NCBI GenBank assembly: GCA_009746045.1
Contig: RPFO01000027.1
Location: forward strand, 404,001-468,000
From: Mesostigma viride
Taxonomy: Eukaryota; Streptophyta; Mesostigmatophyceae; Mesostigmatales; Mesostigmataceae
Length of the DNA stretch: 64,000 bases
Reading direction: 5' to 3'
The notes below the pieces were generated by a model that saw only the letters and a program-made list of their open reading frames with translations, was not told where the DNA came from and made no database searches. The translations under genes were made by a program, and so were the position numbers. Below, piece after piece: positions 544 to 60,419 of the stretch. Numbering within the stretch: position 1 is the stretch's first letter; each line of letters begins with the position of its first letter.

Positions 544-590
544 ACACCGAAAGGGTAAACCGCTCCCCCTTCCCACTGCCTCTTCCTACA

Positions 591-2711: not shown

Positions 2712-2738
2712 GAGGGTGTTCATCCCAATCCCGGGCCT
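2712..2738 (+). other. 2A-like NPGP motif between RNase H and recombinase
   Basis: The in-frame residues EGVHPNPGP lie exactly between the end of RNase H and the start of the recombinase region. Ribosome-skipping 2A peptides end in D-[VI]-E-x-N-P-G-P. This copy has the NPGP core but His instead of the conserved Glu and Gly instead of Asp. Separation of RT-RNase H from recombinase by skipping is possible but unproven. Confidence 0.35.
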
Positions 2739-3666
2739 CGGCTTGGCGCTAGCTACTTGACCCTTCTTGAGGGCAAGGTGAAGCCGGCTACTTTGATGGT
2801 TTACCATCGGGGTCTTAGGTCCTTTTTCGCATGGTGGGCGAGCCGGCGGGGTCGGGTTGGCAGCTTGTTGCGCGGCTTGACGATAGAGGAATACTATTGC
2901 GAGTATGTCGCTTGGGCGCACTCACGGTGTTACAGCCGCCAGTTGTGTGTCAATGCGCTTATGGGCCTGAATTTGTACTTCCCCGGGAGGTGCGGGATTG
3001 GGCCTTGGCACGAAGTGTTTTGGCTGGCTGGCGCACGTTGGCACCCCCTCGTGCCCCCCCCCCATTCCATGGGAGGCTGCGTTTGCGCTTGCTTGTACTA
3101 TGGTGCTCCAGCGGCAGCCTCGTGCGGCTATGATGGTCATCGTTATTTTCCAACAATACCTGCGGGTATCGGAGGCGCTCAACCTGTTGGTCGGCCATGT
3201 GCGCTTGCAGCCTGATGTTCGGTTGCGGGGTTCGCAGCGGGGCGCCTTGTTGTTGATGTCAGCTAAGACGGCTAAGGGGGAGGTGCAGTCTGTGGTGATC
3301 GAGGATGTCATGACTGAGACCCTCTTGCGGGCTTGTATGCGTGGCAAGGCGGCCTGGGAGCGGGTGTTCCCTTACGATTATGCCCAGTTCAGCCGGGTTT
3401 GGCATCAGGCCACGCAAGCTTTGGGGGTCGACACGGTGTTTACCATTCACGGGCTGCGGCATGGGGGGGCTACCTATGATTTTTTGCGGCAGCGCAGCAT
3501 GGCTGATATTCAGCATCGGGGTCGCTGGCGCAGCAGCAAAACTGTCGCCCACTATGTGGGATTGCACCGGAGCTTGGCCCTCACCCTTCCTGACGCCCTG
3601 GTTCGGGCTATCGCCGCCTGCCCCCCGCGCATTTGGCGGAGCGTCTTTTCTCTGCCTTCCTCTTAA
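2739..3666 (+). pseudogene. Tyrosine recombinase of the DIRS-like element, two frameshifts
   Basis: The N-terminal core-binding part (ATLMVYHRGLRSFFAWW) continues the RT frame. Good recombinase-like sequence then moves to the next frame near 2,985 (REVRDWALARSVLAGWRTLAPP) and to a third frame near the ten-C run at 3,054-3,063, from where it reads cleanly to TAA at 3,664-3,666. The catalytic set is complete: Arg at 3,163 (LRVSEAL), HGLR at 3,448-3,459, the H-x-x-R/W region GRW near 3,520, and the nucleophile Tyr at 3,553 (AHYVG). The enzyme would integrate the circular cDNA by recombination. Each break equals one missing base, and one lies at a homopolymer, so real decay and assembly error are both possible. 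Confidence 0.8.
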
Positions 3667-8305: not shown

Positions 8306-10235
8306 TTCATTCCCTCCCTCCTCGGCCCCAACCTTCCTGGGAACGTCATGCCTATACCCAGTGACATTTAATAATATGACGAGCAGTTCTTCTGACGATA
8401 CGAGTGCAGATAAAAAGCTCAGCAGTACTTGATCAACAGAGGCAAATCATTTGTTCACTCATCCGTTCATGCATCCCATCCCACATTGTTGCCAAGGAGG
8501 TCTTCCAGGTTTGTAGTTGAGCCACAACACAAGACTCCTGGGCAGCAATGACACCCCAAAATTAGTACTTACCAACACAAGCACCGGAGTTCACACAATT
8601 CGGGCTAGTCAAAGTGCAGCCCCAATCCACCTCAGAAGCCGAAACTGTGTCCATGCAAACTGCATGCATAAGAGCCACACCCGCATGCCACAAATCATCA
8701 GATATGAGCGAAACCGTCATAAAAGGGTGTGGGAATAATCTAGCATCCAGTTGTACATAAAAGAGACAATTGTTGAAGCAATGTATTGTCGTCAGAAAGC
8801 AACAAACGTGAAAACGCCCAAATCTGAGATTCCGCGGAACACAGAAAACAAGTGAACTCAGTAGCTACCAGCAAGGGATCGAACATAGGACCTTTGGCAT
8901 GATTTCGCGGCTGTGTGAGTCTCCTGATCCGAAGGCATCTCACTTAACGTTACGAAACAGCCCAACTGCGAAAAACCTCTTTACCGGAGAGGGGTGCCAA
9001 TATGTCCGAGATTGCTGAATCTATACACAAGATTACTCACCACTAAGCAATGTATGTAGCAAGAGCATCTGCTATGCGTCAGCCTACATCTTGTTGCACC
9101 CACAGTTGCGCCCGCACCATGATGCGAGGAGAGCGCTCTGTGGCCTGCTCGATCCCCTTGGGAGTTGGGGCAGTGAGAGAAGTTTGGGCGCCCTCCCTCC
9201 TTCTCATTGTGTAGAAGGAATGAAGGTTCCTTCATTGGTACCCACGTGACGCAGTCTACGTGATAATTAACTAACTACTTAATTAATCAATGTAGCACGA
9301 GAATAACAATTGTTAGGACATCAAAACCAGGGTGGGGACGATCAGAATTCCATCCATAGCTTTCCTGCTTGAAAGCCACTAGAGCGTTTTCCCACCATTT
9401 ATACGCCATTCATTCATAATGTGTCTTCCTACCATGAGAGCCGAGCACTTATTGAAAAACAAAAAAACTGAAACAAAGAAAACAAAGCGAAGAATCCCAT
9501 AAGAAAAGAATGCTAAAAGGCGGGAGGACAGGAAAAGGGAAATTCCAGCAAGCTGACCACCTTTCGTGGCTGTATTCACGCAAAAGGGTCCTGTAGTTCT
9601 CAGTAGGTGAGGTTTGCTTGCACTGCACCAACAAAATGTAATGATACTAGTACATGCAGGATGTTCTGAAGCAGTTCTGAATAAGATCAGAGGTTCACAT
9701 GTATGTCCAAGTCAAACTTATCTGGCCGGGGCCGCGACCGGTAACTCGATGCACTGTTGGGAGCTTACCAGGACAGTCAAAACCCCATGTGCCAGTCCTC
9801 AACACAATGAAACTCGCGAATGGGTTAGGTCCACAAATCCAAGGGTTGTTGTTGACCTCTCTGCAATGTCAATATGCAAGAGCAGTGCGCGCATACAATG
9901 CAGGAAATTAGGACAGAAACTTGAGGCAGGAACATCAGACTGTGGCCAAGAAAATCTTGCAAGCACATTCCATGAGTGGATGAACCAAAAGTGAAGCCAG
10001 GCATAACTAGTGTATAACGAGCGCTACTTTCATGATGCATTGCATCACAAGTGATACATTTGAACAGCCACAAGACCTCCCTACCTGTCAGCGTTGCTAT
10101 GGGATTGCCCCACTGCCAGCACCTTAAGCGTGGGCAACACCCCCTGTTGTTTTTCTCCGCAGCCCATCGCTGGTAGATGACACACTAGGCAACCCTTGCC
10201 GTTGGTAGCTCTACGACCATTTAGGTACCACCACT
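8306..10235. other. No gene recognised
   Basis: Short ORFs without recognisable domains; the composition is mixed and moderately AT-rich. A possible tRNA-like fragment near 8,875 (GGGATCGAACATAGGACC) was not convincing. Confidence 0.5.
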
Positions 10236-10856
10236 TAGTGCATACCTAGACCTGAGACTTTTCTCTCACGCAATGCGTTACCTATGAGCCCCGGCAATCT
10301 TACGTCACAGCTATGGTTCTCGGGAAGGTTCAAGGGATTTCATGAAACGTGTTTTGGCAAGGATATTGTGCGTATGGAAGCTTCTTGTTGTGTGAGGGTG
10401 ACGCCCCCTTTCTTCGCAGCGGCATCACAGCGCTCAAAAGCTGAACGGTGGCCCATGGTTCCTTTACATTTTTTTATTAACCGTGGAACTCCAGGGTAAC
10501 CAGACTCTTTATTAATACAATGAGTGGAGCACATACAAAAGGCAGGCCACATCCCGGCCGCATATTCTCATGGGAACACTTATTGCTTGTCATAAGGCTA
10601 TAGCCTTACCCCCCCAAAACGCAGGGAGTGTCGGCGGGAAAAGAGAGGCCGACATTTATAGCTAGGTGGGTTTGCTCTTGTCTTTTTTGCGTGTCACGCA
10701 GCCTTGGCCCGGACGGCATTTCTTCGCCACGCAAATTTTGCGTCTGAACACATGACGGAATCGGGCGTTCTAATTGCCGGCGGCTTACGTAAGTTTGCCG
10801 GGGCTCTTAGGTCACATATTGCGTGAGAGAAAAGTCTTAGATCTAGGTAATCACTA
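10236..10856. repeat. 620-bp block bounded by 75-bp inverted repeats
   Basis: The left arm (10,236-10,310) contains CTGAGACTTTTCTCTCACGC and GAGCCCCGGCAATCTTACG. The right arm (10,782-10,856) is its imperfect reverse complement. The block contains the inverted DIRS terminus. It may be the inverted end structure of a non-autonomous element, but no target duplication was found. Confidence 0.6.
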
Positions 10857-11068
10857 CGTCATTAACATAGAATCCTAGACAGTGGCAGGTCTCTATCTCA
10901 AGGTAGCTGACTCGCCACCTGGCCAGCAAACTGGCCAAATCTTTTGCCTCTGCCGATCCGGGTCAGGCCACACCGGCCTCAAAAGGTATGTCACGTGAAC
11001 CCTATAACCTAGCTATAGCGGCCACCCTTCCATCTCACTATAAAGAAACTATGTTCAGAGAACCACGA
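10455..11068 (-). repeat. DIRS A-B terminus, solo copy in inverse orientation
   Basis: Read on the minus strand, it starts GGTTCTCTGAACATAGTTTC (near 11,065), passes through an A-block equivalent with CACCTAGCT and a C-rich stretch, then GGGGGTAAGGCTATAGCC, and ends GGAGTTCCACGGTTAA (near 10,482). It matches 3,748-4,318 block for block, but with a complete B end. Confidence 0.7.
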
Positions 11069-12160
11069 TATCGTTCAGGGAAGAATGTGTGATTGTGGTG
11101 ATCATGTTGGAGACATTGCATTTGTGTGACTGCATGTAGATAGCTGCTACCATAGGTTTATTTGAGCATTCTTGTTATGATGATCTGATAAGACTACCAT
11201 GTGCTGAGCCAACCATGGTTGACCGTTGACATGGTTGACTGCATGCAAGCTATGTATGCCATGATCCTACTTGGTTCCTTGCCCTCCATTGTCCCTGTTT
11301 GTTGACTATGTCGGGTAGGGCAGTTTAGGAGGTGTTGTTGTGATTATTAGCTTGGCTGGCATAAACCTTTCACTCTAACCTGGGAGAAAGTTAGAAAGTG
11401 CTGGTCAGGCACGTTAGTGCCACCATCGCTATTGTTATGCACATAGTTACAAGGCTGGCCAGATGTGGTCGAGGGGTGGTGAATGCTTATGAGGTGTGTG
11501 GCAACCACTTTGTACTTTGTAAACATATTCAGCATGGTTTTGGTGCATATCGGATGGCATACGAAGTGTCATTGTTTTTACTTGCTTACTGAGTGGTCCT
11601 TAGCGCCTTGTCAGGTGGTCATATATTCATTGATAATGATAATTTACGGAGATGAGATTGGCATGCAACAGAAGAAAAGTCCGGAAAAGAGGAAGAACCC
11701 TAAAGAAAATAACAATGTGACACGGCCATGCAAGGAGCAAGCCCACACAAGGTCATCATACATAGGAATCCCGTCAACTTGAGCAGTTCTCGTCACAATG
11801 ACCCCCAACCTTGAGCATACGTTGTCGTCAGTGTGCAGGTGTTCATTATAAAGCTTTGGTCAGTTTGCAGAGGTCTTTGATGAAGAAGGAGTGATGCTTA
11901 TGCGGTCATATGCCAACTAAAACCTCCATGTAGCGTCTTTGTGGGTGGCCATTTTGGAATGGTTGCAACTTGGGCAGTTTTTGTCAGAATGGCGTCAAAC
12001 CTTGAACATAGGAGGTACCATATGTGCAGAGGATGGTAGTATGTTGTTTGGCCAGGTTTCATGTGGCTTAGATGGTGTTAGGGTGGTTAAATACACTATA
12101 AAACCTACCTTAGCTTCGTCACAGGTGGCAACCTATGAACGTTCATAACTTGAGATGTGG
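11069..12160. other. No gene recognised
   Basis: The region has short ORFs only. Words like GTCAGAATGGCGTCAAACC and ACAATGACCCCCAACC recur (about 11,795, 11,985 and 12,155), suggesting an old, degenerate tandem structure. Confidence 0.45.
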
Positions 12161-12460
12161 TTGTCAGAATGACCTCAAAATGTGGGGCTGCATGCCCCCC
12201 CTCTCTAGTATAGTTGATAATATGTGATATGGCATTTTTCAAAGTGTTTATGATTTGTTTTATTTCTTTTAATTTAGAAAAGTGCGTGTTTTGCGAGAAA
12301 ATTCATAACGCGTGCATCCATGCCTATTTCTCCATCCCAAACAGGTAAAGGTTTTCCAAAGCGGGGGAATTATATGGAAATATGTGATTTGGTCAAGAGC
12401 CTATGTACGGTAACATGCTAATAGTACGGTAAAATGCCAATGGTTGAGTTTTTTTGCTCA
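12161..12460 (+). repeat. Copy of a dispersed AT-rich repeat family
   Basis: Features in order are GACCTCAAAATGTGGGGCTG, a T-rich stretch with TTTAGAAAAGTGCG, and GGGGGAATTATATGGAAATA. The same order recurs at 56.3-57.0 and 57.2-57.6 kb. No coding capacity or terminal repeats seen. Confidence 0.5.
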
Positions 12461-12469
12461 TTGTATATG

Positions 12470-14870
12470 TGATACGCGGACGGGCTCAAAGGGGACCGAA
12501 CTGCCGTAGGTAGCGTAGTACTAACGCCTGTCACGGGGGTACTACGCTTGCCGGCACTTTTGTGCCGGCGGTGCTGAGTGTGGACCCGTGGTGCAGGGCT
12601 AGGTAGCTTCTATTGTACGTCACTAGCTAGACCATGTACCAGCGCCTAGGTGCGGCTGAAGTGTATGGACAGTCAGTACTTAAGAGTGGTGTAGGGGACG
12701 TAGGGAGGCCTCTTTTCAGGACCCACCCACCCACCCACCCACCCACCCACCCACCCACCCACCCCCCCACCCACCCACCCACCCACCCACCCACCCACCC
12801 ACCCACCCACCCACCACCCACCCACCCACCCACCACCCACCCACCCACCCACCCACCCACCCACCCACCCACCCGCCCACCCGCCCACCCGCCCATGCAC
12901 CCGCCCATGCACCCGCCCACCCGCCCACCCGCCCACCCGCCCACCCGCCCACCGCCCACCCGCCCACCCGCCCACCCGCCCACCCTCCCACCCTCCCACC
13001 CTCCCACCCTCCAACCCTCCCTCCCTCCCACCCTCCCTCCTCCCTCCCACCCGCCCACCCGCCCATGCACCCGCCCATGCACCCGCCCATGCACCCGCCC
13101 ATGCACCCGCCCATGCACCCGCCCATGCACCCGCCCTCCCGCCCATCCGCCCTCCCGCCCACCCGCCCTCCGCCCTCCCGCCCTCCCGCCCTCCCGCCCT
13201 CCGCCCTCCCGCCCTCCCGCCCTCCCGCCCTCCGCCCTCCCGCCCTCCCGCCCTCCCGCCCTCCCGCCCGCCCGCCCGCCGCCCCGCCGCCCACCCTCCC
13301 ACCCGCCCACCCTCTCACCCTCCCACCCTCCCACCCTCCCACCCTCCCACCCTCCCACCCTCCCACCCTCCCTCCCTCCCTCCCTCCCTCCCTCTCCCTC
13401 CCTCCCCCTCCCTCCCTCCCTCCCTCCCTCCCTCCCTCCCTCCCTCCTCCCTCCCTCCCACCCTCCCTCCCTCCCTCCCTCCCTCCCTCCCTCCCTCCCA
13501 CCCGCCCATGCACCCGCCCATGCACCCGCCCATGCACCCGCCCATGCACCCGCCCACCCGCCCTCCCGCCCTCCCGCCCTCCCGCCCTCCCGCCCACCCA
13601 CCCGCCCGCCCACCCACCCGCCCACCCGCCCACCCACCCACCCACCCGCCCACCCGCCCGCCCGCCCCCCCGCCCCCCCCCCCCGCCCCCCGCCCCCCGC
13701 CCCCCCGCCCCCCCCCCGCCCCCCGCCCCCCGCCCCCCCCCCCCGCCCCCCCGCCCCCCGCCCCCCCTCCCACCCTCCAGCCTCCCAGCCTCCCAGCCTC
13801 CCAGCCTCCCAGCCTCCCAGCCTCCCAGCCTCCCACCCTCCCACCCTCCCACCCTCCCACCCTCCCACCCTCCCACCCTCCCACCCTCCCACCCTCCCAC
13901 CCTCCCACCCTCCCACCCTCCCACCCACCCTCCCTATCCCTCCCTCCCTCCCACCCTCCCTCCCTCTCCCTCCCTCCCTCCCTCCCTCCCTCCCTCCCTC
14001 CCTCCCTCTCCCTCCCTCCCTCCCTCCCTCCCTCCCTCCCTCCCTCCCTCCCTCCCTCCCTCCCTCCCTCCCTCCCTCCCTCCCTCCCTCCCTCCCTCCC
14101 TCCCTCCCTCCCTCCCGCCCCGCCCCCCGCCCCCCCCCCCCCGCCCCCCCCCCCGCCTCGCCCCCCCCCCCCGCCCCCCCGCCCCCCGCCCCCCCGCCCC
14201 CCCCCGCCCCCCCCCCGCCCCCCCGCCCCCGCCCCCCCGCCCCCCCGCCCCCCGCCCCGCCCCCCCGCCCCCCGCCCCCCCGTCCCCCGCCCACCCTCCC
14301 ACCCTCCCTCCCTCCCCCCTCCCTCCCTCCCTCCCTCCCTCCCTCCCTCCCTCCCTCCCTCCCTCCCTCCCTCCCTCCCTCCCTCCCTCCCTCCCTCCCT
14401 CCCTCCCTCCTCCCTCCCTCCCTCCCTCCCTCCCTCCCTCCCTCCCTCCTCCCTCCCTCCCTCCCTCCCTCCCTCCCTCCCTCCCTCCCTGCCTCCCTCC
14501 CTCCCTCCCTCCCTCCCTCCTCCCGCCCACCCACCCACCCACCCACCCACCCACCCACCCACCCACCCACCCACCCACCCACCCACCCACCCACCCACCC
14601 ACCCACCCACCCACCCACCCACCCACCCACCCACCCACCCACCCACCCACCCACCCACCCACCCACCCACACTGCTAAGAGACAAATAATGTGTTTGGAG
14701 ATATGTGCTGGGCCCCAGCATGGCGCTACAACAACCAGCCTGATAATGATTTGTACAGTGACTTTGAATGGTGTGACCAGTATAGGCTCTACTTTATAAT
14801 GAAGCCTAGCACCTTTAAATGTAATACAAGAGTTTCTCTTGGTGGGAAGGAACTCGAATGGACCAAAAGC
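12470..14870 (+). mobile_element. Non-coding repeat element with a giant C-rich core
   Basis: The left part (CGCGGACGGGCTCAAAGG, GGTAGCGTAG) and the sequences on both sides of the C-rich core (GAGTGGTGTAGGGGACGTAG on the left, CTGGGCCCCAGCAT on the right) recur in inverted orientation around a short GGGT/GGAT array at 20.4-21.07 kb. The unit therefore includes both flanks and the simple repeat. The class is unknown; no transposase and no clear terminal repeats. Confidence 0.55.
12719..14670 (+). repeat. CCCA/CCCT/CCCG tetranucleotide array, 1.95 kb
   Basis: The array consists almost only of CCCA, CCCT and CCCG units arranged in blocks, with short CCCATGCA variants and G-interrupted C runs at 13,665-13,775 and 14,118-14,295. 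Long ORFs in five frames (Pro-rich on plus, Gly-rich on minus) are artefacts of the missing stop codons. The G-rich minus strand could form G-quadruplexes. Confidence 0.95.
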
Positions 14871-15860
14871 TAGGAATGTATATGGCTTGTTTTTCTGTGT
14901 TTTAAAAAATGTTTTTTAGTATATCTGAGCATGTCACTAGAAATTTGGATGACCGGGCGGTCCGGCCCTGTAACCCGAACCGCACGTAGAAAGGGTCCGT
15001 TATGGTTTACGGGACTGGCTACTGGGTCTGTTCAGGTTACCGGGCTGGTTTATACTGGGGCAGTTCAGGTTACTGAGCTGGTTACTGGCCTGGCATTCAT
15101 ATACATTCACGTAATATTCTAGTGCACCGACCCACGCTCTATGTAATCATCTGCACATGTTGATGAGGATGACGGGCGACGGCGCATGTCGATGAGGATG
15201 ACCGCGGGTAACGATGAGGATAACAGCAGGTAATGATGAGGATGACAGCTAGTGCTACCATGGCTAGGTGCACTACCCCCATGGGCATTTTTCTGGGGAC
15301 ACACTGCCAACGCAAGGAAATGATTACAAGGATGATTACGGCGCGGCGCTGCTGCTACTGGCCGTGATGCATGATGATTACAACCTGGAGCTGTAGTACA
15401 CATAGTAGCCCTAGTAGCACGAAAAGAACTTCAAGAAGGACAGTTGTGACCCCTACCGAAGCGGGTGAACCCTTTCACATGTCTCTCTGGGCGAGAGCAA
15501 GTTTTGAATTATCAACGATAAAAAAGAAGGGTGAGTTGCCCTTGCATCGCTTGCACTCGCAAGTCGATTGCAGCATGCCGATTGCAGTCACCAGCCGGTT
15601 GCACAGAGTAGTGAAAGAATATCTGCGCCTAAAAGGGATTTAAGGCTTATGGCGTCTGGAAAAGAAGACGCAGCAAAAGGCGCACCGGGATCTATAACAA
15701 ACCTAGTTTCGAGCCGCAGCTTAGCAAGATTGACGTATCCGTTTTCCAGCCATCGACAGCTCTCTCTCCGATACCGCTAGCCTACCCTGGCGTACCCCTT
15801 AGGCAGCTACATCGCTCTAGGATTGTCGTTGTTCCTACAGGCGAATTAAAGTTCGTGACA
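14871..15860. other. No gene recognised
   Basis: Short ORFs only. Near 15,000-15,090 the words GGTTACTGGGC and GGTTACCGGGC recur (CGGGCTGGTT, CTGAGCTGGTT), a weak local repeat. Confidence 0.45.
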
Positions 15861-15956
15861 TTATTCGCCGTTAGCATCCAAGAAAGCTAGTGCAAGCTCA
15901 TTACGCAAAGAAAAGGTAAAAACAATTTTTCTGAATCCCGCATATGTGATCAATTG
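15861..15956 (-). CDS. Possible terminal exon of the LRR gene
   Basis: The last LRR-type acceptor (minus strand ...GCGTGCAG, plus 15,957 onward) is followed not by an LRR but by a short reading frame. It starts in the same phase (Q-L-I-T-Y), continues for about 31 residues and ends at a TAA (plus-strand TTA at 15,861-15,863). A simpler reading is that the array is broken here by unrelated sequence and the frame is chance. No membrane segment or kinase sequence follows. Confidence 0.25.
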   Translation of the reverse strand, partial: QLITYAGFRKIVFTFSLRNELALAFLDANGE

Positions 15957-16142
15957 CCTGCACGCATCAGCGGTCCCATGCACAAAGACACACGGGTCCG
16001 GCCGGGTGGGGAGTTGAGGCCAAGCTCAGGTCAGTGCAAAGCGGAAGGTGGACTCAGGGAGAGCCGGGGGGACAAGACTGGCGGCGAAAGTAAGAGGACA
16101 GGGACATCGCAGCAGGGCACGATAGTGGGAACACACACTTAC

Positions 16143-19100
16143 AGGTATTGCAGAGAAGACAGTGAGCGTAGCTCCGGGGGGATGGTGCCTGACAACTGGT
16201 TGTAGCTCAACGACCTGCACGCATCAGCAATCCCACAAAGACACACCCGGCCGGGTCGTGAGTTGAGGCCGTGTTCAGGTCAGTGCAAAGCGGAAGGTGG
16301 AGGGAGAGCCGGGGGGACAAGACTGGTGGCGAAAGTAAGAGGACAGGGACATCGCAGCAGGGCACGATAGTGGGAACACACACTTACAGGTATTGCAGAG
16401 AAGACAGTGAGCCTAGCTCCGGGGGGATGGTGCCTGCCAACAGATTGCTGTTCAATTGCCTCAGCGATCCCACAAAGACACACCCGGCCGGGTCGCCAGT
16501 TGAGGCCGAGCTCAGGTGAGTGCAAGGCAGAAGGTGGATCGAGGGAGAGCCGGGGGGACAAGACTGGCGGCTGAAAAGTAAGAGGACAGGGACATCGTAG
16601 CAGGGCACGATAGCGGGAACACACACTTACAGCCCTCGCAGAGAAGTCAGCGACCCCAGCTGTGGGGGGATGGTGCCTGCCAACAGGTTCCTGTACAATG
16701 CCCTGCACGCATCAGCGGTCCCACAAAAACACACCCGGCCGGGTCGCGAGTTGAGGCCGAGCTCAGGTCAGTGCAAAGCGGAAGGTGGAGGGAGAGCCGG
16801 GGGGACAAGACTGGCGGCGAACGTAAGAGGGCAGGGACATGACGTAGCAGGGCACGATAGCAGGAATACACACTTACAGGTATTGCAGAGAAGACAGCGA
16901 GCCCAGCTGTGGGGGGATGGTGCCTGCCAACAGGTTGCTGTTCAATGCCCTGCACGCATCAGCGGTCCCACAAAAACACACCCGGCCGGGTCGCGAGTTG
17001 AGGCCGAGCTCAGGTCAGTGCAAAGCGGAAGGTGGAGGGAGAGCCGGGGGGACAAGACTGGCGGCGAACGTAAGAGGGCAGGGACATGACGTAGCAGGGC
17101 ACGATAGCAGGAATACACTTACAGCGTTTGCAGAGAAGACAGCGAGCCCAGTTCCAGGGGGATGGTTCCTGACAATTGGTTGCTGTCCAAATGCCTGCAC
17201 GCATCAGCGGTCCCACAAAAACACACCCGGCCGGGTCGCGAGTTGAGGCCGAGCTCTGGTCAGTGCAAAGCGGAAGGTGGACTCAGGGAGAGCCGGGGGG
17301 ACAGGACTGGCGGCGAAAGTAAGAGGACAGGGACATCGCAGCAGGGCACGATAGCAGGAATACACACTTACAGCTGTTGCAGAGAAGACAGCGAGCCCAG
17401 CTGCGGGGGGGTGGTGCCTGTCAACCGGTTGCTGAACAACCTCCTGCACGCATCAGAGGTCCCACAAAGACACACCCGGCCGGGTCGGGAGTTGAGGCCG
17501 AGCTCGAGTCAGTACAAAGTGGAAGGTGGAGGGAGATCCGGGGGGACAAGACTGGCGGCGAAAGTAAGAGAACAGGGACATCGTAGCAGGGCACGAACAC
17601 ACACTTACAGCTGTTGCAGAGAAGACAGCGAGCCCAGCTGCGGGGGGATGGTGCCTGTCAAATAGTTGCTGAACAACAACCTGCACGCATCAGCGGTCCC
17701 ACAAAAACACACCCGGCCGGGTCGCGAGTTGAGGCCGAGCTCTGGTCAGTGCAAAGCGGAAGGTGGACTCAGGGAGAGCCGGGGGGACAGGACTGGCGGC
17801 GAAAGTAAGAGGACAGGGACATCGCAGCAGGGCACGATAGCAGGAATACACACTTACAGCTGTTGCAGAGAAGACAGCGAGCCCAGCTGCGGGGGGGTGG
17901 TGCCTGTCAACAGGTTGCTGTACAACAACCTGCACGCGGTACCACAAAGACACACCCGGCCGGGTCGCCAGTTGAGGCCGAGCTCAGGTCAGTGCAAAGC
18001 GGAAGGTGGACTCAGGGAGAGCCGGGGGGACAAGACTGGCGGCGAAAGTAAGAGAACAGGGACATCGTAGCAGGGCACGAACACACACTTACAGCTGTTG
18101 CAGAGAAGACAGCGAGCCCAGTTCCAGGGGGATGGTTCCTGACAATTGGTTCCTGTCCAAATGCCTGCACGCATCAGCGGTCCCACAAAGACACAAACAG
18201 CCGGGTCCCAAGTTGAGGCCGAGCTCAGGTCAGTGCAAAGCAGAAGGTGGAGGGAATGCCGGGGGGACAGGACTGGCAGCGAAAGTAAGAGGACGGGGAC
18301 ATCGCAGCAGGGCATGAACACACACTTACAGCTGTTGCAGAGAAGACAGCGAGCCCAGCTGCGGGGGGATGGTTCCTGACAAATATTGGTTTATGCTCAA
18401 CCACCTGCACGCATCAGCGGTTCCACAAAAACACACCCGGCCGGGTCCCAAGTTGAGGCCAAGCTCCAGGTCAGTGCAAAGGTGAAGGTGGAGGGAGAGC
18501 CAGAGGGACTAGACTGGCAGCGAAAGTAAGAGGACAGGGACATCATAGCAGGGCACGATAGCGGGAACACACACTTACAGCTGTTGCAGAGAAGACAGCG
18601 AGCCCAGCTGCGGGGGGATGGTGCCTGCCAAATAGTTGCTTCTCAAGTCCCTGCACGCATCAGCGCCGGTCCCCCAAAGATACACCCGGCCGGGTCGCGA
18701 GTTGAGGCCGAGCTCAGGTCAGTGCAAAGCGGAAGGTGGACTCAGGGAGAGCCGGGGGGACAAGACTGGCGGCGAAAGTAAGAGGACGGGGACATCGCAG
18801 CAGGGCACGATAGCGGGAACACACACTTACAGGTATTGCAGACGAGACAGGGAGCCCAGCTGCGGGGGGATGGTGCCTCCCAACTGGGAGCTGAACAACC
18901 TCCTGCACGCATCAGAGGTCCCACAAAGACACACCCGGCCGGGTCGGGAGTTGAGGCCGAGCTCGAGTCAGTACAAAGTGGAAGGTGGAGGGAGATCCGG
19001 GGGCACAAGACTGGCGGCGAAAGTAAGAGGACAGGGACATCGTAGCAGGGCACGATAGCGGGAACACACACTTACAGCTCTTGCAGAGAAGACAGCGAGC

Positions 19101-20259
19101 CCAGCTGCGGGGGGATGGTGCCTGTCAACTGGAAGCTGCTCAAATGCCTGCACACATCAGCGGTCCCACAAAGACACACTCGGCCGGGTCGCGAGTTGAG
19201 GCCGCGCTAAGGTCAGTGCAAAGCGTAAGGTGGAGGGAGATCTCGGGGGACAAGAATGGTGTCCAAAGTAAGAGGACAGAGACATCGTAGAAGGGCGCGA
19301 TAGCTGGAACACACTTACAGCGTTTGCAGAGAAGACAATGAGCCCAGCTCCGGGGGGATGGTGCTCGTCAACCGGTTGCCGCTCAACAGCCTGCACGCAT
19401 CAGCGGTCCCACAAATAAGACACACCCGGCCGGGTCGCGAGGTGAGGCCGAGCTCAGGTCAGTGCAAAGGTGAAGGTGGAGGGAGAGCGGGGGGACAAGA
19501 CTGGCGGCGAGAGTGTCAGGGAATTAATTCCCTGTGTACACTTGCCAGTTGTTATTTTATCTTGGCAGGTGGTATGTGTGTTATTGTGTTATGGTTTTAT
19601 ATTATTATAGTGTTTATTACTAGCTTCACGCACATATTTATACTATATATTTCGGTGAAGTATTTCCTAAGATATTAAATATTTAGTGATAAACAATATT
19701 TAGTGTGAGCCACGTCAAGGCCGGTACGGTACTATATCTAGGACCTGTAACGGCTGTCCTGTTGTGGCGGCGGCTCACCAGTCCTGGCATGCTGACTGTG
19801 TCCGTTTTCGGATTCTGTGGTCTTACTTGTCATATCCGATATTCTACGGTCTACATTAGTTCTCAGCAGAATCTACGGACTGGATTTGTATTGCGTGGGG
19901 ACATCGCAGCAGGGCACGATAGCGGGAACACACACTTACAGCTGTTGCAGAGAAGATAGCGAGCCCAGCTGCGGGGGGGTGGTGCCTGCCAACAGGTTGC
20001 CGCTCAATTGCCTGTACGCATCAGCAATCCCCCAAAGATACACCCGGTCGGGTCGCGAGTTGAGGCCGCGCTAAGGTCAGTGCAAAGCGGAAGTGGACTC
20101 AGGGAGAGCCGGGGGGAGAAGACTGGTGGCGAAAGTAAGAGGACGGGGACATCGTAGCAGGGCACGATAGCGGGAACACACACTTACAGCTGTTGCAGAG
20201 AAGATAGCGAGCCCAGCTGTGGGGGGATGGTGCCTGATAACTTGTTGTTGACCAACAAC
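16143..20259 (-). CDS. Leucine-rich-repeat protein encoded by 16 single-LRR exons
   Basis: Exons on the minus strand, by plus coordinates: 16,143-16,214; 16,388-16,459; 16,631-16,702; 16,878-16,949; 17,123-17,194; 17,372-17,443; 17,609-17,680; 17,858-17,929; 18,093-18,164; 18,330-18,404; 18,579-18,650; 18,831-18,902; 19,076-19,147; 19,319-19,390; 19,940-20,011; 20,188-20,259. Fifteen are 72 nt and one is 75 nt. Each begins after ...GCGTGCAG (or a variant) and ends before GTAAG. Introns are phase 2, splitting a Leu codon (CT|G), so any exon can be joined to any other. Each encodes one plant-type LRR, for example NLLAGTIPPELGSLSSLQ. I translated ten of the sixteen and found no stops. Such repeats form curved binding surfaces in receptors and secreted proteins. 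No signal peptide, membrane segment or kinase was found, so the gene is partial or a decayed array. Confidence 0.75.
19514..19894. mobile_element. About 375-bp insertion in an LRR intron
   Basis: The regular unit is interrupted after GACTGGCGGCGAGAG, and the array resumes at GGGGACATCGCAGCAGGG. The insert is AT-rich, unlike the array, and starts TGTCAGGGAATTAATTCCC. This resembles an LTR start and is similar to the first bases of the solo LTR at 36,297. About 10 bp of the unit are missing and I see no target duplication, so it may be a truncated LTR. Confidence 0.5.
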
Positions 20260-20439
20260 CTGCACGCATCAGCGGTCCCCAAAAGACACACCCGGCCGGG
20301 TTCGAGTTTGAGGCCGTGCTCAGGTCAGTGCAGAGCGGAAGGTGGAGGGAGATCCGGGGCACAAGAATGGGGGCGAAAGTAAAGGGACAGCGACACTGTA
20401 GCAGAGCACGATAGCAAGATTCTTGGTTACTTTGTTACA

Positions 20440-21070
20440 TAGGGCTGTTAAGGACTTAAAACGGAGCCTGAGCCACATTATAGAAGTGATTGTCCAACAG
20501 TTATCAAGCTGGCCATGTCACCATATGCTGGGGCCCACGGCTTTCAGCACGTGTCCCACCAGCTTGCCTGATAGCTCAGCAGCGTGGGTGGGTGGGTGGG
20601 TGGGTGGGTGGGTGGGTCGGTGGGTGGATTGGCGGATAGGTGGATGGGTGGATGGGCGGATGTGTGGATGTGTGGATGGGTGGATGGGCGGATGGGTGGA
20701 TGGGTGGATGGGTGGATGGGTGGATGGGTGAGAGCTGGAAAAAGCCTCCCTATGTCCACCGCACCACTCTAGGTACGTGTGCACAAAACGTCCAACCACA
20801 CCATGTCATGTGCACCTTAATTTCCTGGCAGCACAATTTCAGATTAGGACATGCATCCATACCGTGGTCTATTCCGTACAGTCTGGGGTATCCCCCTCTA
20901 CTACAGGGTCCCCATTTCCGGCAACACGATCATGCAGGCACCTAGGTGTAGGCCCTCTGCCTAGTCTAGCGAATACACCTCACAAGTGCATAGAGTAGGT
21001 GGCACACGGCAGACCTACGCTACCAGTGGCAGTGTGGCCCACTTTGAGCCCATCCGCGACTAAAGTACGA
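20440..21070 (-). mobile_element. Second copy of the C-rich-core element, inverted
   Basis: Read on the minus strand, it has CGGATGGGCTCAAAGTGG, GGTAGCGTAG, GAGTGGTG and ACATAGGGAGGC. These are followed by a short (CCCA/TCCA)n core (plus 20,584-20,732) and then GGGCCCCAGCAT. The order is the same as at 12.5-14.8 kb. The core is only about 150 bp here, against 1.95 kb there. Confidence 0.6.
20584..20732 (+). repeat. GGGT/GGAT tetranucleotide array
   Basis: Perfect GGGT units grade into GGAT and GGCGGAT variants. This is the core of the element copy around it. Confidence 0.9.
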
Positions 21071-21159
21071 GCACACTCAACAAAAATTACATAGTAGTAC
21101 ATGGATTATTAGCTATGAGCCATTGGAGTACCAAACCCAACCATGAGAAACAATTAAAT

Positions 21160-21338
21160 TACAATATTTGTGTGCTAGCTTTATAGTGAAGCCTAAGCCA
21201 CATGCACCATCCAACTAATTGTACAAATCATCATCAAGTCGGCTTTGTCGCCACTTTGGGGCCCAAGACTTGTCCCATGATACAACCGAAAGCTATTCCT
21301 GCAGCAGCGAGGGAGGGTGGGTGGGAGTTAGAATAAAG
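21160..21338 (-). repeat. Third, partial copy of the C-rich-core element
   Basis: It matches the flank of the second copy (GCCTAAGCCACAT, ATCATCAAGTCGGC, TGGGGCCCA) and ends in a short GAGGGAGGGTGGGTGGG tract. The remainder is missing. Confidence 0.45.
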
Positions 21339-21453
21339 AGTGATGGAACCCTTTTGCCGCCTACACGCGCATAAACTTTGGCGTACCGGCGACTGGTATC
21401 ACCGGGTAATAGTGCCGGACCTTTGCCGCAGGTGGCAACAGGGTTCCGTCACT
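21339..21453. mobile_element. MITE with AGTGACGGAACCC inverted ends, copy 1
   Basis: The left end AGTGATGGAACCCTTTTGCC pairs with the right end GGCAACAGGGTTCCGTCACT. A relative lies at 30,845. Non-coding, about 115 bp. Confidence 0.65.
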
Positions 21454-21698
21454 ACTTATTATAACTAAAACCTGGCCTCGTGGAGGAGGGTCAAAGAGCC
21501 CGAGGCATCCGCATGGGGCCTGCTAAGCACGCACCGACATTCGCCGGACATGTCTCAGTTACTGGATTCTAACTGACATGCGCCGGACATGTCTCAGTTA
21601 GGATTCGAACCCTTGACCTCCGCGTTCTTGGACGGCATATATGTACGTCATACTGTCCTGGCTAGCATACGCAATTAGGAATTATAGGTATTGGTTTC
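21454..21698. other. Non-coding, with a tRNA-like B-box
   Basis: On the minus strand GGGTTCGAATCCT (plus 21,600-21,612) matches the RNA polymerase III B-box, but flanking stems do not pair as in a tRNA. The word GACATGTCTCAGTTA occurs twice. It may be a tRNA-derived SINE remnant. Confidence 0.3.
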
Positions 21699-21820
21699 TG
21701 TTAGCAGAATAGCCGGGCTATCTGCTTTTATATGTCGAAGGTTCACTTCGACTACTTGCGGAAGTAGTCGAAGTGAACCTTCGACGTATAAAAGCAGATA
21801 GCCCGGCTATTCTGCTAACA
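21699..21820. mobile_element. 122-bp near-perfect foldback element
   Basis: The left arm, from TGTTAGCAGAATAGCCGGGC, is matched by the right arm ending GCCCGGCTATTCTGCTAACA, with only a few bases between the arms near 21,758. It abuts the truncated LTR at 21,821. Two direct copies of the right arm occur at 31,717-31,833. Confidence 0.8.
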
Positions 21821-22030
21821 CGGGGCACTGTTCCAATTGCATTAGTAGCTCTTTCCTAATGCAAGTTGTGTAGATTAATACAATATTATTAAGCACTGTG
21901 AGCCGTAGCAGTATAAATGCCGCAACTGCTCCGTTAATCCCACTCCCAAAGAGTGGTCGCGGTTAGCCTAAATATCCGTAAGCCACCCTAACACTTAGGT
22001 CTTTCGCACGTGCAGGGCGGGCACGTTAGA
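21821..22030 (+). repeat. Truncated 5' LTR of the gag-only element
   Basis: It matches 29,890-30,103 (GGGGCACTGTTCCAATTGCA to GGCACGTTAGA). The first roughly 400 bp of the LTR are missing, replaced by the foldback element. Substitutions and a small indel near 21,893 separate the two copies. Confidence 0.85.
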
Positions 22031-22031
22031 C

Positions 22032-22044
22032 TGGTTATCGGAGG
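22032..22044 (+). promoter_or_regulatory. Candidate tRNA primer-binding site
   Basis: TGGTTATCGGAGG begins one base after the LTR. It starts with TGG, as needed to pair with a tRNA CCA end, and resembles an initiator-Met site with one extra T. Confidence 0.45.
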
Positions 22045-23340
22045 TTAGGTTAGGGAGGATTAAAAGCCAGGGCAATGTGAGCTAAGTGGTGGCCGTTGCC
22101 ACTGGAATAGGCGACAGCTGGTAGGGGTAGCGTGAGCTACAACACGGGCAAGCCCCTGCAAGCTGACGGCTCCATTGTACAAAGTCGCCAGCAACATCAA
22201 GGCGACATAAACGAGGTTAGGGAGGTTTAGAATGGTGGCCCAGAGCCGTGCATAGACTAGCCAAGGCCCAGAGCCGAACGGGTTCAACCAGCCCTGCCGG
22301 GGTTGCTGCTAGAACCCGGGAGCGTTCAGAGCCACTAGCCGCAGCCCGGGGCGCCATCCAAGACCGTCATAGCCCATGCTAGTAGCCTTTTGCAAGTCTA
22401 AGGACACGAGACGTCCATGAACATGGTAAGAAGCTAGAGAGTTCTCTCCCATCCTTCCTGTTTTTCCTGTCTTACCCACGCGCGTAGGAACGGGATTTTT
22501 GTTTTCTGTCGTATTCTGTATACACGTCTGTGCACTTTGGTGTTGGGTCGGCCCCAGAGGTCGACCCTCGTGAGTTGTGGGTGGACCCCCAGTCTAGGGC
22601 AACGCTGCCTACAGCTCGAGGGTAGTCACCGGCTGGCCGTTGCCACTTGTGTTGCCGGTGGCTGTACCTCAACGTTTGCGTATTGTCTGTGAACGTGCTG
22701 TTACTGCCTTGTGTTGCTCCCTCGCCGTGAGCACGTCACAAGCACGTACGTAGAGGTATCCTGGGTGGGCTTTCTCCTTTTCCTCCTTGTATGTCCATAT
22801 CTATATTATGCAGTAGCTCAGGATGGGGCAACGGGACAACCAGCCATATTTTTATTAAGGATAAGGTCATACACCCAGCATCCACAGCAATGTGGGTGTA
22901 TTAGTTTAGATTAGTCTGGTAGAATTGTGTGTGCCCCCATGCATCCATCCATCAGGGTTGATACTCCGTGACTCCCCGACAGGAGCGCACGTTTAATAAA
23001 TTAATCCACAGCAAGATGGTAGGGATTTAATACGGTAGCTGAGGCAGATCAGTATATTAGTGATTATATGTTGCTACCAGAAGGGCTGCACCAGACCAGA
23101 GATGTTCCACAGTTACCTGCACAGGATGTGTTGCTTGCACTAGAGCAGCTTCACCTGAGCACGGCCTCTAGGACATAAGCACTAGATAGGGTGCCACTCC
23201 AGCTTATAGCTGATAGCATTTAGTTTATCGCGTATAGTAGAGGACTTGTGGTTTGTCCTTTCTCCTTTCTCTCCTGTGTGCCTGTGTTGGGGGAGGTATT
23301 GTGTACCTGGTAAGGTGCTGGAAAGGTACAAGGGCCCGGA
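22045..23340 (+). other. Long 5' leader of the gag-only element
   Basis: Nearly 1.3 kb lies between the candidate primer site and the first gag ATG, with only short ORFs in it. No promoter or other conserved motif could be named. Confidence 0.4.
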
Positions 23341-27486
<4,146 letters not shown>

Positions 27487-31716: not shown

Positions 31717-31833
31717 CGCAAGTAGTCAAAGTGAACCTTCGACGTATAAAAGTAAATAGCCCGGCTATTCGCGCAAGTAGTCGAAGTGAACTTTCGACGT
31801 ATAAAAGCAGATAGCCCGGCTATTCTGCTAACT
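31717..31833 (+). repeat. Two direct copies of the foldback arm
   Basis: Both carry CGCAAGTAGTC, GTGAAC, TCGACGTATAAAAG and AGCCCGGCTATTC; the second ends CTGCTAAC. They match the right arm of the foldback at 21,699-21,820, in direct repeat rather than as a hairpin. Confidence 0.75.
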
Positions 31834-31835
31834 AT

Positions 31836-32390
31836 ATCGATACAGTCTTCACAAGGACGTATCGTAACAAGAAGCAAGGATACGTAGCAGGCACACCATG
31901 AGTGGGGATTGGGTCACTTACAACGTGTTCAAGGCTGTCAAACAATACCGATACAGTTTTTACAAAGACCTATCGTAACAAGAAGCAAGGATACGTAGCA
32001 GGCACACCGAGAGTGGGGATTGAGTCACTTACAACGTGGTCAAGGCTGTCAAACAATATCAATACAGTCTTCACAAAGACGTATCGTAACAAGAAGCAAG
32101 GATACGTAGCAGGCACACCGTGAGTGGGGATTGGGTCACTTACAACGTGGTCAAGGCTGTCAAACAATATCGATACAGTCTTCACAAAGACATATCGTAA
32201 CAAGAAGCAAGGATACGTAGCAGGCACACCATGAGTGGGGATTGGGTCACTTACAACGTGGTCAAGGCTGTCAAACAATATCGATACAGTCTTCACGAAG
32301 ACGTATATCATAACAAGAAGCAAGGATACGTAGCAGGCACACCATGAGTGGGGATTGGGTCACTTACAACGTGGTCAAGGCTGTCAAAGA
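31836..32390 (+). repeat. 111-bp tandem repeat, five units
   Basis: ATCGTAACAAGAAGC recurs at 31,861, 31,972, 32,083 and 32,194, with a slightly altered copy at about 32,307. Each unit also carries GGATACGTAGCAGGCACACC and TGGGGATTGGGTCACTTACA. The period is 37 codons, so it stays open on both strands (repeat NKKQGYVAGTP on plus). I do not recognise the peptide and there is no gene context. Confidence 0.9.
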
Positions 32391-33214
32391 GCCCAGCTCG
32401 CGTGCGATAGTCCCTGAGATACCTAGCCTGCGTTCACAAAGAAAAGCATATACTTCCCAGAAAGTATTGAAATGGTGAAGGCCAGTCGGGCTCTACACTG
32501 GATGCTGGTGAACGGTGAGCAGGCGAGCCAAATCATGGTTTTTCGAACATCCTTTCTTGAAGCTAGGTGGAAATGAGGCCGCACCAGACACTGCGAAGAA
32601 GGGACCTCGGAAAAATCCACGATGTACATAGTGTTTTGTGCGAGAGGCTCCGGCGAAGCTGGCATATCGGAAAAATATGTGTAGTGAGCAAAGAAAAAGG
32701 AAAACAAACGAAAATCTGGCTAGCGTAACGCATTCTCAGTGTTTTCAGATAAGCTACGCAATCTCAGTGCCAGCCTGTCAAGCACTTACAATGCGTGCAC
32801 CTTTGTGCATAAGAGGAAGACGCAATCTACGTTAGTCTATCCTTGCCACGATGTAGCCACCACGGGATCCACATTATGTGGTTGGTGGACAAGTTCGGTG
32901 GCTGAATTGATGAGCGAAATTGATGAGCGACTAATATTAATCAATGCAATTATCATTACGTCTCAATCGTGTTCCATCAATGTCCACACAAATCATATTT
33001 TTCTTTCAACACAACTACCACATTTTGGATTTCGAGGATGGAATCATGATGAGCTATGAGGCTTATGCATTATTCGATAGTCCGGCCAGAAATTCGCGGC
33101 CTGAGTCGCGTAATATTTGCTGGTCAGGCGTCTTTGTTGTAGTCCTGCCGGCCAGCATTTTTTCTGGAACTGGCCCAGTGCCGCGGCCTGCAGTGAGCCG
33201 CAGGCAATATGTAT
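32391..33214. other. No gene recognised
   Basis: Short ORFs only. This is the 3' flank of the LINE. The words GTGCCGCGGCCTGCAGTGAG (33,179) and GTGCCGCAGCCTAGAGTGCG (31,530) are similar. Confidence 0.4.
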
Positions 33215-43832: not shown

Positions 43833-43891
43833 GGCAGTCAACCCCTAGGGCGGGTGGTCACTCTAACAACAACAATAACAACAACAACAGC

Positions 43892-43927
<36 letters not shown>

Positions 43928-50040: not shown

Positions 50041-51084
50041 AGAAGTAACAGCCTGCAGCTGCCATGTATATGTATACAGGCTCAGCAATTTTAATGATTG
50101 GTACTTAAAAAGCTGGAGTGGTATCATGTACATAATGCAATAGAATATAGAGCGTGCACAACGAAACCTTCTCACTACGTACAAAACAATTAAACGACTG
50201 TGCTTACCCGTTCAGATCTAGGCTTATTACACGGCCTGTGACGCTGCACCCGACGCCTATGAAGCTGCACGGGCTCCCACTTGTGGTCCAGCTGTCCAAT
50301 CTTGTTCCTGTATTGTTAAACGCGCTCTTCTGAGCTATCAAAGCTCCTCTGTCACTCTCTGGAAAGGGCATAGCGAACGCAAGAATTGCAGGACATTTCT
50401 TTGAAACAATTAATTATTCAAACAGGACTCAAAAGGGTAGCACACGCCAGCCCATGCATCTGATGTGCCCTAGCGTATGTACCCTTTCAACCTGGGTCAA
50501 TTCTTCTGCCCAGTGGACGGGGGGGTTCGGATGGTCCGGACGAGGCCAACGGGAAACTGCGCCTCCCCCGGCCAGATGCCGGGACAAAACAAAAACTCCA
50601 AATATTGGACTTTCTTACAGGTTTGATGTTTATCTCATACATCATGTTAGAAGTATACAAAACTTGGCTATAATTTTGAATCAGCAGTAGCCATGCAAGT
50701 AACTGTCAACAAACACGCAAAAAAATAAGATGCTCAGTGGACGGCCAGGTAGCTCTCTGCCCAGTACCGAGAGCCTCAACATGAATAAACATGCTGATTG
50801 CTGGCTAACACTATAAACACGTTGGCCAACATGCTCATTGCTGTCCACTTATGGACCACTGACTCCATGGTTGACAGCATGGTAATGATGAAAAGCCGAA
50901 AAACACATGCCAGCAGCGCCCTTGCTAGACTACGGCATCCCCTTCATGTTTCCACAAGCAAGCATACATATTGACCGGCTGTAACTCCCTGGAGGCCAGT
51001 GGTCCTGCCCAACCACATCTAAATCGCTGGAAGGGCGCAACCACCAAGGACCGGCGAGGCTGTGCGTAAAGTAAGCTGGTTTGT
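50041..51084. other. No gene recognised
   Basis: AT-rich with short ORFs only; no repeat family identified. Confidence 0.4.
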
Positions 51085-60382: not shown

Positions 60383-60419
60383 CTAATGCTACTCTCATCC
60401 TCCCTCAAGCCCGAGGAGT

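What the first reader, a model, noticed from the sequence alone, without database searches (positions are those of the whole stretch)
16143..20259. Sixteen tandem single-LRR exons, nearly all 72 nt and all in phase 2
On the minus strand each roughly 245-bp unit contains one exon between a GCGTGCAG-type acceptor and a GTAAG donor, encoding one plant-type LRR. Fifteen exons are 72 nt and one is 75 nt, and all split a Leu codon CT|G. None of the ten I translated has a stop. Introns are as similar as exons, so whole units were duplicated recently. Any exon can be skipped, added or exchanged without frame loss, so this could be a generator of binding-surface diversity by unequal crossing-over or alternative splicing. 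Phase-2 72-nt LRR exons are known in some LRR genes; a homogenised array this long is unusual.
Basis: partly seen in the sequence, partly recalled or inferred. Interest (0 to 1): 0.85.

Follow-up and report, generated by a model that had tools for sequence, protein, structure and literature searches.

The report
Plant-type LRR receptor gene exon array
A photosynthetic eukaryote with a green-plant-type Rubisco carries a leucine-rich-repeat receptor-like gene in which each repeat sits in its own small exon, and the exons differ mainly at the codons that should face a ligand; the layout is a known one, the strong diversification is the interesting part.

Summary
In detail: 16 minus-strand exons (15 of 72 nt, one of 75 nt), all phase 2 (CT|G), all with GTAAGT donors, none with a stop. 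One supporting claim is wrong: introns are more alike than exons (8.4% against 18.2% mean difference). The array is not isolated. Upstream on the same strand lie a plant-type LRRNT_2 cap exon (50358-50208, Pfam E 2e-10) and a 60-nt phase-2 first-LRR exon (32427-32368); with the array they form one open frame. The genome has 66 LRRNT_2 hits; on 10 of 14 contigs with such arrays a cap lies upstream on the same strand. A form IB Rubisco small subunit on a 2.9-Mb contig argues for a green-plastid organism and against a brown-algal LRR-ROCO gene. Variation is concentrated at the exposed xxLxLxx codons (pN 0.44; introns 0.08). Best reading: ectodomain of a plant-type LRR receptor-like protein, expanded by unit duplication and gene conversion, with diversifying selection on the binding face. 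One-LRR 72-nt phase-2 exons are described for rice LRR-kinases and brown-algal ROCO genes. The 3' end is unresolved; expression and splicing are untested.

The parts
50208..50358 (-). LRRNT_2 N-terminal cap exon, 151 nt by my reading: acceptor CCCTTTCCAG (phase 1 in), donor GG|GTAAGC (phase 2 out)
   Evidence: profile of C1713 caps E 2.2e-7; Pfam PF08263 E 2e-10, 41.2 bits against cut-off 20.7; genome search C335:454243-454359:- 41.2 bits; exon limits read
32368..32427 (-). first-LRR exon, 60 nt, phase 2 on both sides, LGISGTIARELGSLTALTT, acceptor AACGCAG, donor TT|GTAAGTGA
   Evidence: LRR profile E 6.3e-6, the only hit outside the array with E below 1; splice sites; the same 60-nt exon type found in C1713
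20188..20259 (-). LRR exon 1 of the array (72 nt)
19940..20011 (-). LRR exon 2 (72 nt)
19512..19892 (-). about 380 nt of other sequence lengthening intron 2 to 549 nt (limits approximate)
   Evidence: no other copy in the window or the loci then held
19319..19390 (-). LRR exon 3 (72 nt)
19076..19147 (-). LRR exon 4 (72 nt)
18831..18902 (-). LRR exon 5 (72 nt)
18579..18650 (-). LRR exon 6 (72 nt)
18330..18404 (-). LRR exon 7 (75 nt, one extra codon)
18093..18164 (-). LRR exon 8 (72 nt)
17858..17929 (-). LRR exon 9 (72 nt)
17609..17680 (-). LRR exon 10 (72 nt)
17372..17443 (-). LRR exon 11 (72 nt)
17123..17194 (-). LRR exon 12 (72 nt)
16878..16949 (-). LRR exon 13 (72 nt)
16631..16702 (-). LRR exon 14 (72 nt)
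16388..16459 (-). LRR exon 15 (72 nt), acceptor altered by an 8-nt loss (TCGCTGAG)
16143..16214 (-). LRR exon 16 (72 nt)
15861..15957 (-). possible terminal exon after the last GCGTGCAG acceptor: 31 further codons, then TAA; no Pfam match
   Evidence: sequence read; hmmscan; overlaps a dispersed repeat
15489..15915 (-). dispersed repeat lying across the 3' end of the array (39 other copies listed at 73-75% identity; 40 of 181 candidates were scored)
20260..20415 (-). upstream part-unit: intron-like sequence without a preceding LRR exon

Best explanation
The array encodes the repeat part of the ectodomain of a plant-type LRR receptor-like protein: [a signal-peptide exon, not identified] - LRRNT_2 cap exon - 60-nt first-LRR exon - sixteen one-LRR exons - a C-terminal exon that is unresolved here. 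The gene runs on the minus strand from at least 50358 to about 15861, with long introns that hold retroelements and satellites. From the cap onward every junction examined is phase 2, so whole exon-intron units can be lost, gained or exchanged without frame loss. Units at this locus have been made alike by local duplication and gene conversion, while selection has diversified the residues on the concave, ligand-facing side. Shown by sequence: exon anatomy, joint open frame of cap, first repeat and array, unit likeness within the locus, conflicts between units that imply recombination, excess amino-acid change at exposed codons. Inferred: transcription, splicing of all exons together, extracellular location, ligand binding, a role in recognising microbes or self.
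For: Cap exon: Pfam LRRNT_2 E 2e-10; 60-nt first-LRR exon with AG/GT and phase 2; the joined frame reads as a plant LRR N-terminus (Pfam LRRNT_2 plus LRR families). The cap - 60-nt exon - 72-nt exons layout also occurs in the paralogous cluster on C1713. Genome-wide: 66 LRRNT_2 hits. I listed by hand 14 contigs (this one included) with at least two single-LRR-exon hits: on 10 of 14 a cap lies upstream on the same strand, 5 to 69 kb away, and on 0 of 14 on the opposite strand within 70 kb. 12 array hits sampled on 12 other contigs: 11 are complete 72-nt phase-2 exons with AG and GT, the twelfth is cut off by the fetched stretch. Closest solved relatives by sequence are plant receptor ectodomains (GSO1, FLS2, ERL2). 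Selection: with the exposed set fixed by the motif xxLxLxx (codons 22, 23, 1, 3, 4), pN is 0.44 there and 0.11 at the other codons, pS 0.26 there and 0.15 at the others, intron difference 0.08; bootstrap ratio of exposed pN to pS elsewhere 2.0 to 4.8 (13 units). Recombination: minimum events 2 in exons, 7 in introns, 10 in whole units; introns i9 and i11 are identical over 177 nt while the exons before them differ at 4 of 72 nt and those after them at 14 of 72.
Against: No transcript data. The cap lies 30 kb and the first-LRR exon 12 kb from the array, so one transcription unit is inferred. No signal-peptide exon, convincing anchor, kinase motif or other signalling domain was found; in the window plus 20 kb downstream the motif scan gave no kinase hit and two unconvincing P-loop patterns. 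A dispersed repeat lies across the 3' end, so the gene may be truncated, and no C-cap motif like that of the C1713 genes was seen. Exon 15 has an altered acceptor. Over the whole exon dN/dS is 1.16 with a bootstrap range of 0.85 to 1.69, which includes 1. Outside the five exposed codons pN (0.11) was below the intron difference in only 5% of bootstraps, so purifying selection there is not shown against introns. Neighbouring units are not significantly more alike than distant ones (Mantel p 0.06 for exons, 0.08 for introns), so simple neighbour-to-neighbour unequal crossing-over is not shown.
Confidence: 0.8

Rival explanations
1. Brown-algal-type LRR-ROCO gene: an LRR exon array in front of a ROC-COR GTPase, shuffled as a candidate immune receptor.
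For: Same exon length and phase, and positive selection on the concave face, as in the paper on ROCO genes (PMC11378527).
Against: No COR match in the genome at E 0.001 (that paper found COR by HMM in only 18 of 111 brown-algal ROCO genes, so weak by itself). The 22 ROC-model hits are no evidence for ROCO: of the eight loci cut out, five showed a frame with a P-loop that I read as ordinary small GTPases (Rab, Rac, Ran types, by recall); the other three are minus-strand hits that my script, which translated plus frames only, did not read; the remaining 14 hits were not looked at. No convincing P-loop in the window or 20 kb beyond. Rubisco small subunit on a 2.9-Mb contig scores 156 bits against green-type chains and 49 bits against the red type (type labels by recall). 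The N-cap is plant-type LRRNT_2.
Confidence: 0.04
2. Decaying fragment: a once functional LRR gene truncated at the 3' end by a dispersed repeat; the exons are open only because the loss is recent.
For: Dispersed repeat across the 3' end, altered acceptor of exon 15, large intron insertions, no C-cap found, no clear purifying selection outside the exposed codons, modest chance value for 16 open frames.
Against: 16 of 16 exons open, 16 of 16 donors intact, one exon indel and it is in frame; structural Leu codons 2 and 7 are unchanged in the amino acid in all fifteen 72-nt exons.
Confidence: 0.25
3. The exposed codons differ because of a targeted mutation process or a donor-templated mechanism acting on exons, and not because of selection on ordinary mutation and gene conversion.
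For: Exons differ more than introns, and units with identical introns carry different exons. Synonymous change outside the exposed codons also exceeds intron change (0.154 against 0.080; higher in 99% of bootstraps).
Against: Selection with gene conversion gives the same pattern; I found no donor array (the two-unit DNA probe matched almost only this locus) and did not search for a cis element; the structural leucines within the same 72 nt do not change.
Confidence: 0.05

Closest known systems
Plant LRR receptor-like kinases with one-LRR exons (rice LRR-kinases, PMC3050792)
   Same: 72-nt exons coding one LRR, phase 2, splitting the first Leu of xxLxLxx (passages read); closest solved sequences are plant receptor ectodomains; LRRNT_2 cap, usual in plant LRR receptors (recalled).
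   Different: No kinase or transmembrane part found here; sixteen such exons in a row with introns only 8% different; the units are homogenised within one locus.
Brown-algal LRR-ROCO genes (PMC11378527; Zambounis 2012 known only through that paper)
   Same: 72-bp phase-2 one-LRR exons, positive selection on concave-face sites, proposed diversification of recognition.
   Different: No ROC-COR found, green-type Rubisco, plant-type LRRNT_2 cap; intron likeness measured here.
Tetrahymena 90-bp-exon LRR genes (PMC6564038, passages read)
   Same: Tandem uniform exons with phase-2 introns, ectopic recombination, variable exon number.
   Different: Exon length 90 bp, different LRR phasing, ciliate lineage.

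Membership tests
Plant-type LRR receptor-like protein (ectodomain) | LRRNT_2 N-terminal cap before the repeats | tested here: met
   PF08263 E 2e-10; joins the repeats in frame
Plant-type LRR receptor-like protein (ectodomain) | Plant-specific 24-residue LRR (LxxLxLxxNxLSGxIPxxLxxL) | tested here: met
   16 exons scoring 8 or 9 of 9 key positions; Pfam LRR_1 E 9e-46
Plant-type LRR receptor-like protein (ectodomain) | One-LRR exons with phase-2 introns splitting Leu | tested here: met
   description in PMC3050792
Plant-type LRR receptor-like protein (ectodomain) | Signal peptide and transmembrane anchor | tested here: inconclusive
   the cap exon starts in mid-codon by my reading, so an upstream exon is expected but was not searched for; a hydrophobic-segment scan of window 10000-23000 gave four unattached candidates
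LRR receptor-like kinase | C-terminal kinase domain | tested here: not met
   no HRD-type or glycine-loop motif in C335:384001-468000, nor on the plus strand of the C1713 stretch, part of which is masked; a kinase exon further away is not excluded
Brown-algal LRR-ROCO | ROC-COR after the LRRs | tested here: not met
   no COR in the genome at E 0.001; no convincing P-loop near the array
Brown-algal LRR-ROCO | 72-bp phase-2 LRR exons | tested here: met
Tetrahymena 90-bp-exon LRR genes | exons of exactly 90 bp | tested here: not met
   72 and 75 nt
Alternatively spliced exon array | Transcripts with different exon subsets | not testable with these tools

The most novel reading that the evidence does not exclude
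A green-plastid eukaryote maintains a family of plant-type LRR receptor-like genes (66 LRRNT_2 caps in the genome, including longer-exon genes) whose one-repeat exons act as exchangeable cassettes: introns are homogenised, ligand-facing codons are driven apart, and more than 100 such exons stand in one cluster. This would be a rapidly renewed recognition repertoire that arose separately from the brown-algal ROCO and Tetrahymena systems, possibly multiplied further by exon skipping.
Probability: 0.35. Interest if true: 0.65.

Novelty: new member of a known kind. Interest (0 to 1): 0.42.

Why it matters
Exon-modular LRR arrays have been proposed as a recognition repertoire in brown algae and described in Tetrahymena. 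A clear case in a green-plastid lineage, with plant-type receptor anatomy and exposed codons differing about five times as much as the introns between them, gives a third system in which to test whether such arrays work as evolvable binding surfaces. It also shows that the gene is larger than the array: a cap and a first repeat lie 30 and 12 kb away.

Tried and rejected
ROC search in the own genome first looked like support for a ROCO gene; of the eight loci cut out, five showed a frame with a P-loop that looks like an ordinary small GTPase; the other three are minus-strand hits and were not read, because the script translated plus frames only. The COR search was negative. Kinase and P-loop motif scans around the array and the C1713 cluster gave no kinase motif and seven unconvincing P-loop patterns. 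Pfam scans of ten open frames of the window gave reverse transcriptase, zinc-knuckle and phage-integrase domains and one weak TrAA12 match below cut-off, no receptor domain; nine further frames (eight from C1713 loci, one from the window) gave a Root_cap match below cut-off and weak coiled-coil-like matches. A regular-expression search for the 60-nt first-LRR exon found it in C1713 but missed it in the window; the profile search found it. My first set of 'exposed' codons (23, 1, 3, 4, 6, 8) was chosen after seeing the data; I replaced it by the set fixed by the xxLxLxx motif and rely on that. The correlation of unit likeness with distance was not significant. GRAS search negative, with no positive control, so the green lineage is not narrowed further. 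Rfam: no match in the window. Structure prediction was not attempted: the tool takes proteins read from the DNA in one frame, and I judged that the spliced protein would not qualify. Literature for a green-algal precedent: (1, 54, 0, 17 and 2,683 papers; 1, 12, 0, 10 and 10 listed). Among the titles and abstract starts listed I saw none on one-LRR exon arrays in green algae; PMC7145615 (listing only) concerns NB-LRR proteins in Chlorophyta. I opened only PMC11378527, PMC6564038 and PMC3050792.
Full report
WHAT IS THERE. On the minus strand of the window 16 exons lie at 20259..16143, mostly about 245 nt apart. Fifteen are 72 nt and one is 75 nt. All 16 begin with G and end with CT, so a Leu codon is split CT|G at each junction; all 16 donors read GTAAGT; 13 of 16 acceptors read exactly GCGTGCAG. 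None has a stop. The repeats match Pfam LRR families strongly (LRR_1 E 9e-46), and the closest solved sequences are plant receptor ectodomains such as GSO1, FLS2 and ERL2. A detail that follows from CTG plus GTAA: reading on into any of the 16 following introns gives an immediate in-frame TAA (16 of 16), so a retained intron would end the protein exactly at a repeat boundary.

ONE CLAIM CORRECTED. Over 14 introns (the fifteenth, with the insertion, was left out) the mean pairwise difference is 8.4%; over the 16 exons it is 18.2%. Introns i9 and i11 are identical over 177 nt, and i12 and i13 over 173 nt, while the exons beside them differ at 4 to 15 of 72 positions.

WHERE THE VARIATION SITS. 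I first grouped codons after seeing the variation, which is circular, so I repeated the test with the exposed positions fixed by the LRR motif xxLxLxx (codons 22, 23, 1, 3, 4). On 13 units with complete data, nonsynonymous difference per site is 0.44 at these codons and 0.11 at the others; synonymous difference is 0.26 and 0.15; intron difference is 0.08. In every bootstrap exposed nonsynonymous difference exceeded intron difference. Of 57 distinct variants in the fifteen 72-nt exons, 25 fall in these five codons, where 12 would be expected (p 8e-5). Results that point the other way: over the whole exon dN/dS is 1.16 with a bootstrap range of 0.85 to 1.69, and outside the exposed codons nonsynonymous difference was below intron difference in only 5% of bootstraps, so purifying selection there is not clear. 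Synonymous change there also exceeds intron change (higher in 99% of bootstraps), which fits older exon alleles kept while introns are homogenised, but other causes are possible. Open frames alone are modest evidence: with substitutions placed at random, no stop appears in 0.95% of simulations; counting distinct variants only, the chance is 12%. In the C1713 cluster (113 exons of 72 nt) the same codons also stand out: pN 0.48 against 0.10 elsewhere, pS 0.39 and 0.21.

THE REST OF THE GENE. A 592-nt DNA probe of about two and a half units matched the 440-Mb assembly at nine places within this array and at one other place, 73 nt at 79% on the same contig; that place holds one more 72-nt phase-2 LRR exon. 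So the array is homogenised locally. Protein searches, however, found many similar single-LRR exons elsewhere (150 of 567 and 150 of 619 candidates were scored, so lower bounds). One cluster, on contig C1713, was fetched: 116 intact exons on one strand over 155 kb; a tolerant profile gave 118 hits, 2 of them new; part of that stretch is masked. Comparing the flanks of its exon groups revealed a plant-type N-terminal cap (Pfam LRRNT_2, three of three peptides tested), and 60-nt first-LRR exons were found behind three of the caps. A profile of five of these caps then found a sixth in C1713 and one in the window, on the same strand as the array, at 50358-50208 (profile E 2.2e-7; Pfam E 2e-10). 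It ends in a phase-2 donor GG|GTAAGC, as do three of the six C1713 caps; one has GG|GTGAGC and two have TT|GTAAGT. An LRR profile found one further exon outside the array, at 32427-32368: 60 nt, AG acceptor, TT|GTAAGT donor, phase 2 on both sides. Cap, first repeat and 16 repeats join into one frame without a stop. Retroelement frames and satellites lie in the 12-kb and 18-kb introns. Such distances are usual in this genome: of 14 contigs (this one included) that I listed by hand as having at least two single-LRR-exon hits, 10 have a cap upstream on the same strand, 5 to 69 kb away, and none has one on the opposite strand within 70 kb; four (C1668, C2156, C36, C1530) have no listed cap (coordinates). 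Some of these contigs may be alternative haplotypes, so they are not fourteen independent cases. Array hits on 12 other contigs were sampled: 11 are complete 72-nt phase-2 exons, the twelfth is cut by the fetched stretch.

THE 3' END. After exon 16 a further GCGTGCAG acceptor leads at 15957 into 31 codons and a stop; this peptide has no Pfam match and overlaps a dispersed repeat at 15915-15489. Behind five exon groups of C1713 a conserved frame with a NPLICG motif follows an acceptor; it looks like a C-terminal LRR cap by recall, and has no Pfam match. That motif was not seen on the minus strand of the window or of the 20 kb downstream. No kinase motif and no convincing P-loop was found there either. 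Whether the protein is secreted, anchored or truncated is open.

WHICH ORGANISM. The brown-algal precedent made a brown alga the first guess. The genome has a Rubisco small subunit on a 2.9-Mb contig and a second one on contig C2; the one read matches chloroplast-type chains at up to 156 bits and the red type at 49 bits (the assignment of PDB entries to green and red types is by recall). That argues for a green-plastid organism. A GRAS search was negative but had no positive control. I do not name the species; a secondary green plastid is not excluded.

HOW IT PROBABLY WORKS. Shown: modular phase-2 units, local homogenisation, recombination between units (minimum 2 events in exons, 7 in introns, 10 in whole units), and strong diversification of the exposed face. 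Inferred: units are copied and exchanged by unequal crossing-over and gene conversion, and selection for new binding surfaces keeps exposed codons different. Neighbouring units are not significantly more alike than distant ones (Mantel p 0.06 and 0.08), so the detailed route is not settled. Alternative splicing is possible by design but untested.

WHAT IS KNOWN ALREADY. Rice LRR-kinases: short exons of 72 nt with one LRR, phase 2, splitting the first Leu of xxLxLxx, with exon duplication and shuffling proposed (PMC3050792, passages). Brown-algal ROCO genes: 72-bp phase-2 LRR exons, up to 49 repeats, splice variants, positive selection on concave sites (PMC11378527, parts 1-4 of 6 read). Tetrahymena: tens of thousands of exactly 90-bp phase-2 LRR exons, 1 to 51 per LRR gene in T. 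thermophila (PMC6564038, passages). The present case is a further member of this kind. In five searches of open-licence papers I saw no report of such arrays in green algae among the rows listed; the longer lists were cut at 10 or 12 rows.

VERDICT. Real, correctly described apart from the intron claim, and explained: the repeat array of a plant-type LRR receptor-like gene. Ordinary in architecture, interesting in the strength of diversification and in the size of the family.

Noticed in passing
window 31830-32388 (minus strand): A 111-bp minisatellite of five copies repeats the last part of the first-LRR exon together with its donor: five identical donor motifs at 32372, 32259, 32148, 32037 and 31926.
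   Followed up: partly
G000:C1713:1278098-1433359: Tandem cluster of LRR genes with 116 intact one-LRR exons in 15 groups on one strand, with six cap exons, five of which built the profile that found the sixth; part of the stretch is masked.
   Followed up: partly
window 41003-47365 (plus strand): One open frame of 2121 codons runs through about 2.8 kb of CAAGGG repeat into a Copia-type reverse transcriptase (RVT_2 E 4e-11 in 43865-47365); the hexanucleotide keeps the frame open.
   Followed up: no
window 3-3663 (plus strand): Open frame of 1070 codons overlapping a frame with a phage-integrase-type recombinase domain (E 6e-7), perhaps a tyrosine-recombinase retroelement.
   Followed up: no
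window 12721-14668, 23558-25913: Kilobase-long microsatellites: ACCCTCCC (1.9 kb) and GCA (2.4 kb).
   Followed up: no
window 58119-58874 and 59618-60667: Two stretches whose open frames begin with the same peptides, 1.5 kb apart, pointing to a recent direct duplication.
   Followed up: no
window 33376-35898 (minus strand): Frame of 841 codons with a reverse transcriptase domain (RVT_1 E 9e-10), inside the presumed intron between cap and first repeat.
   Followed up: no
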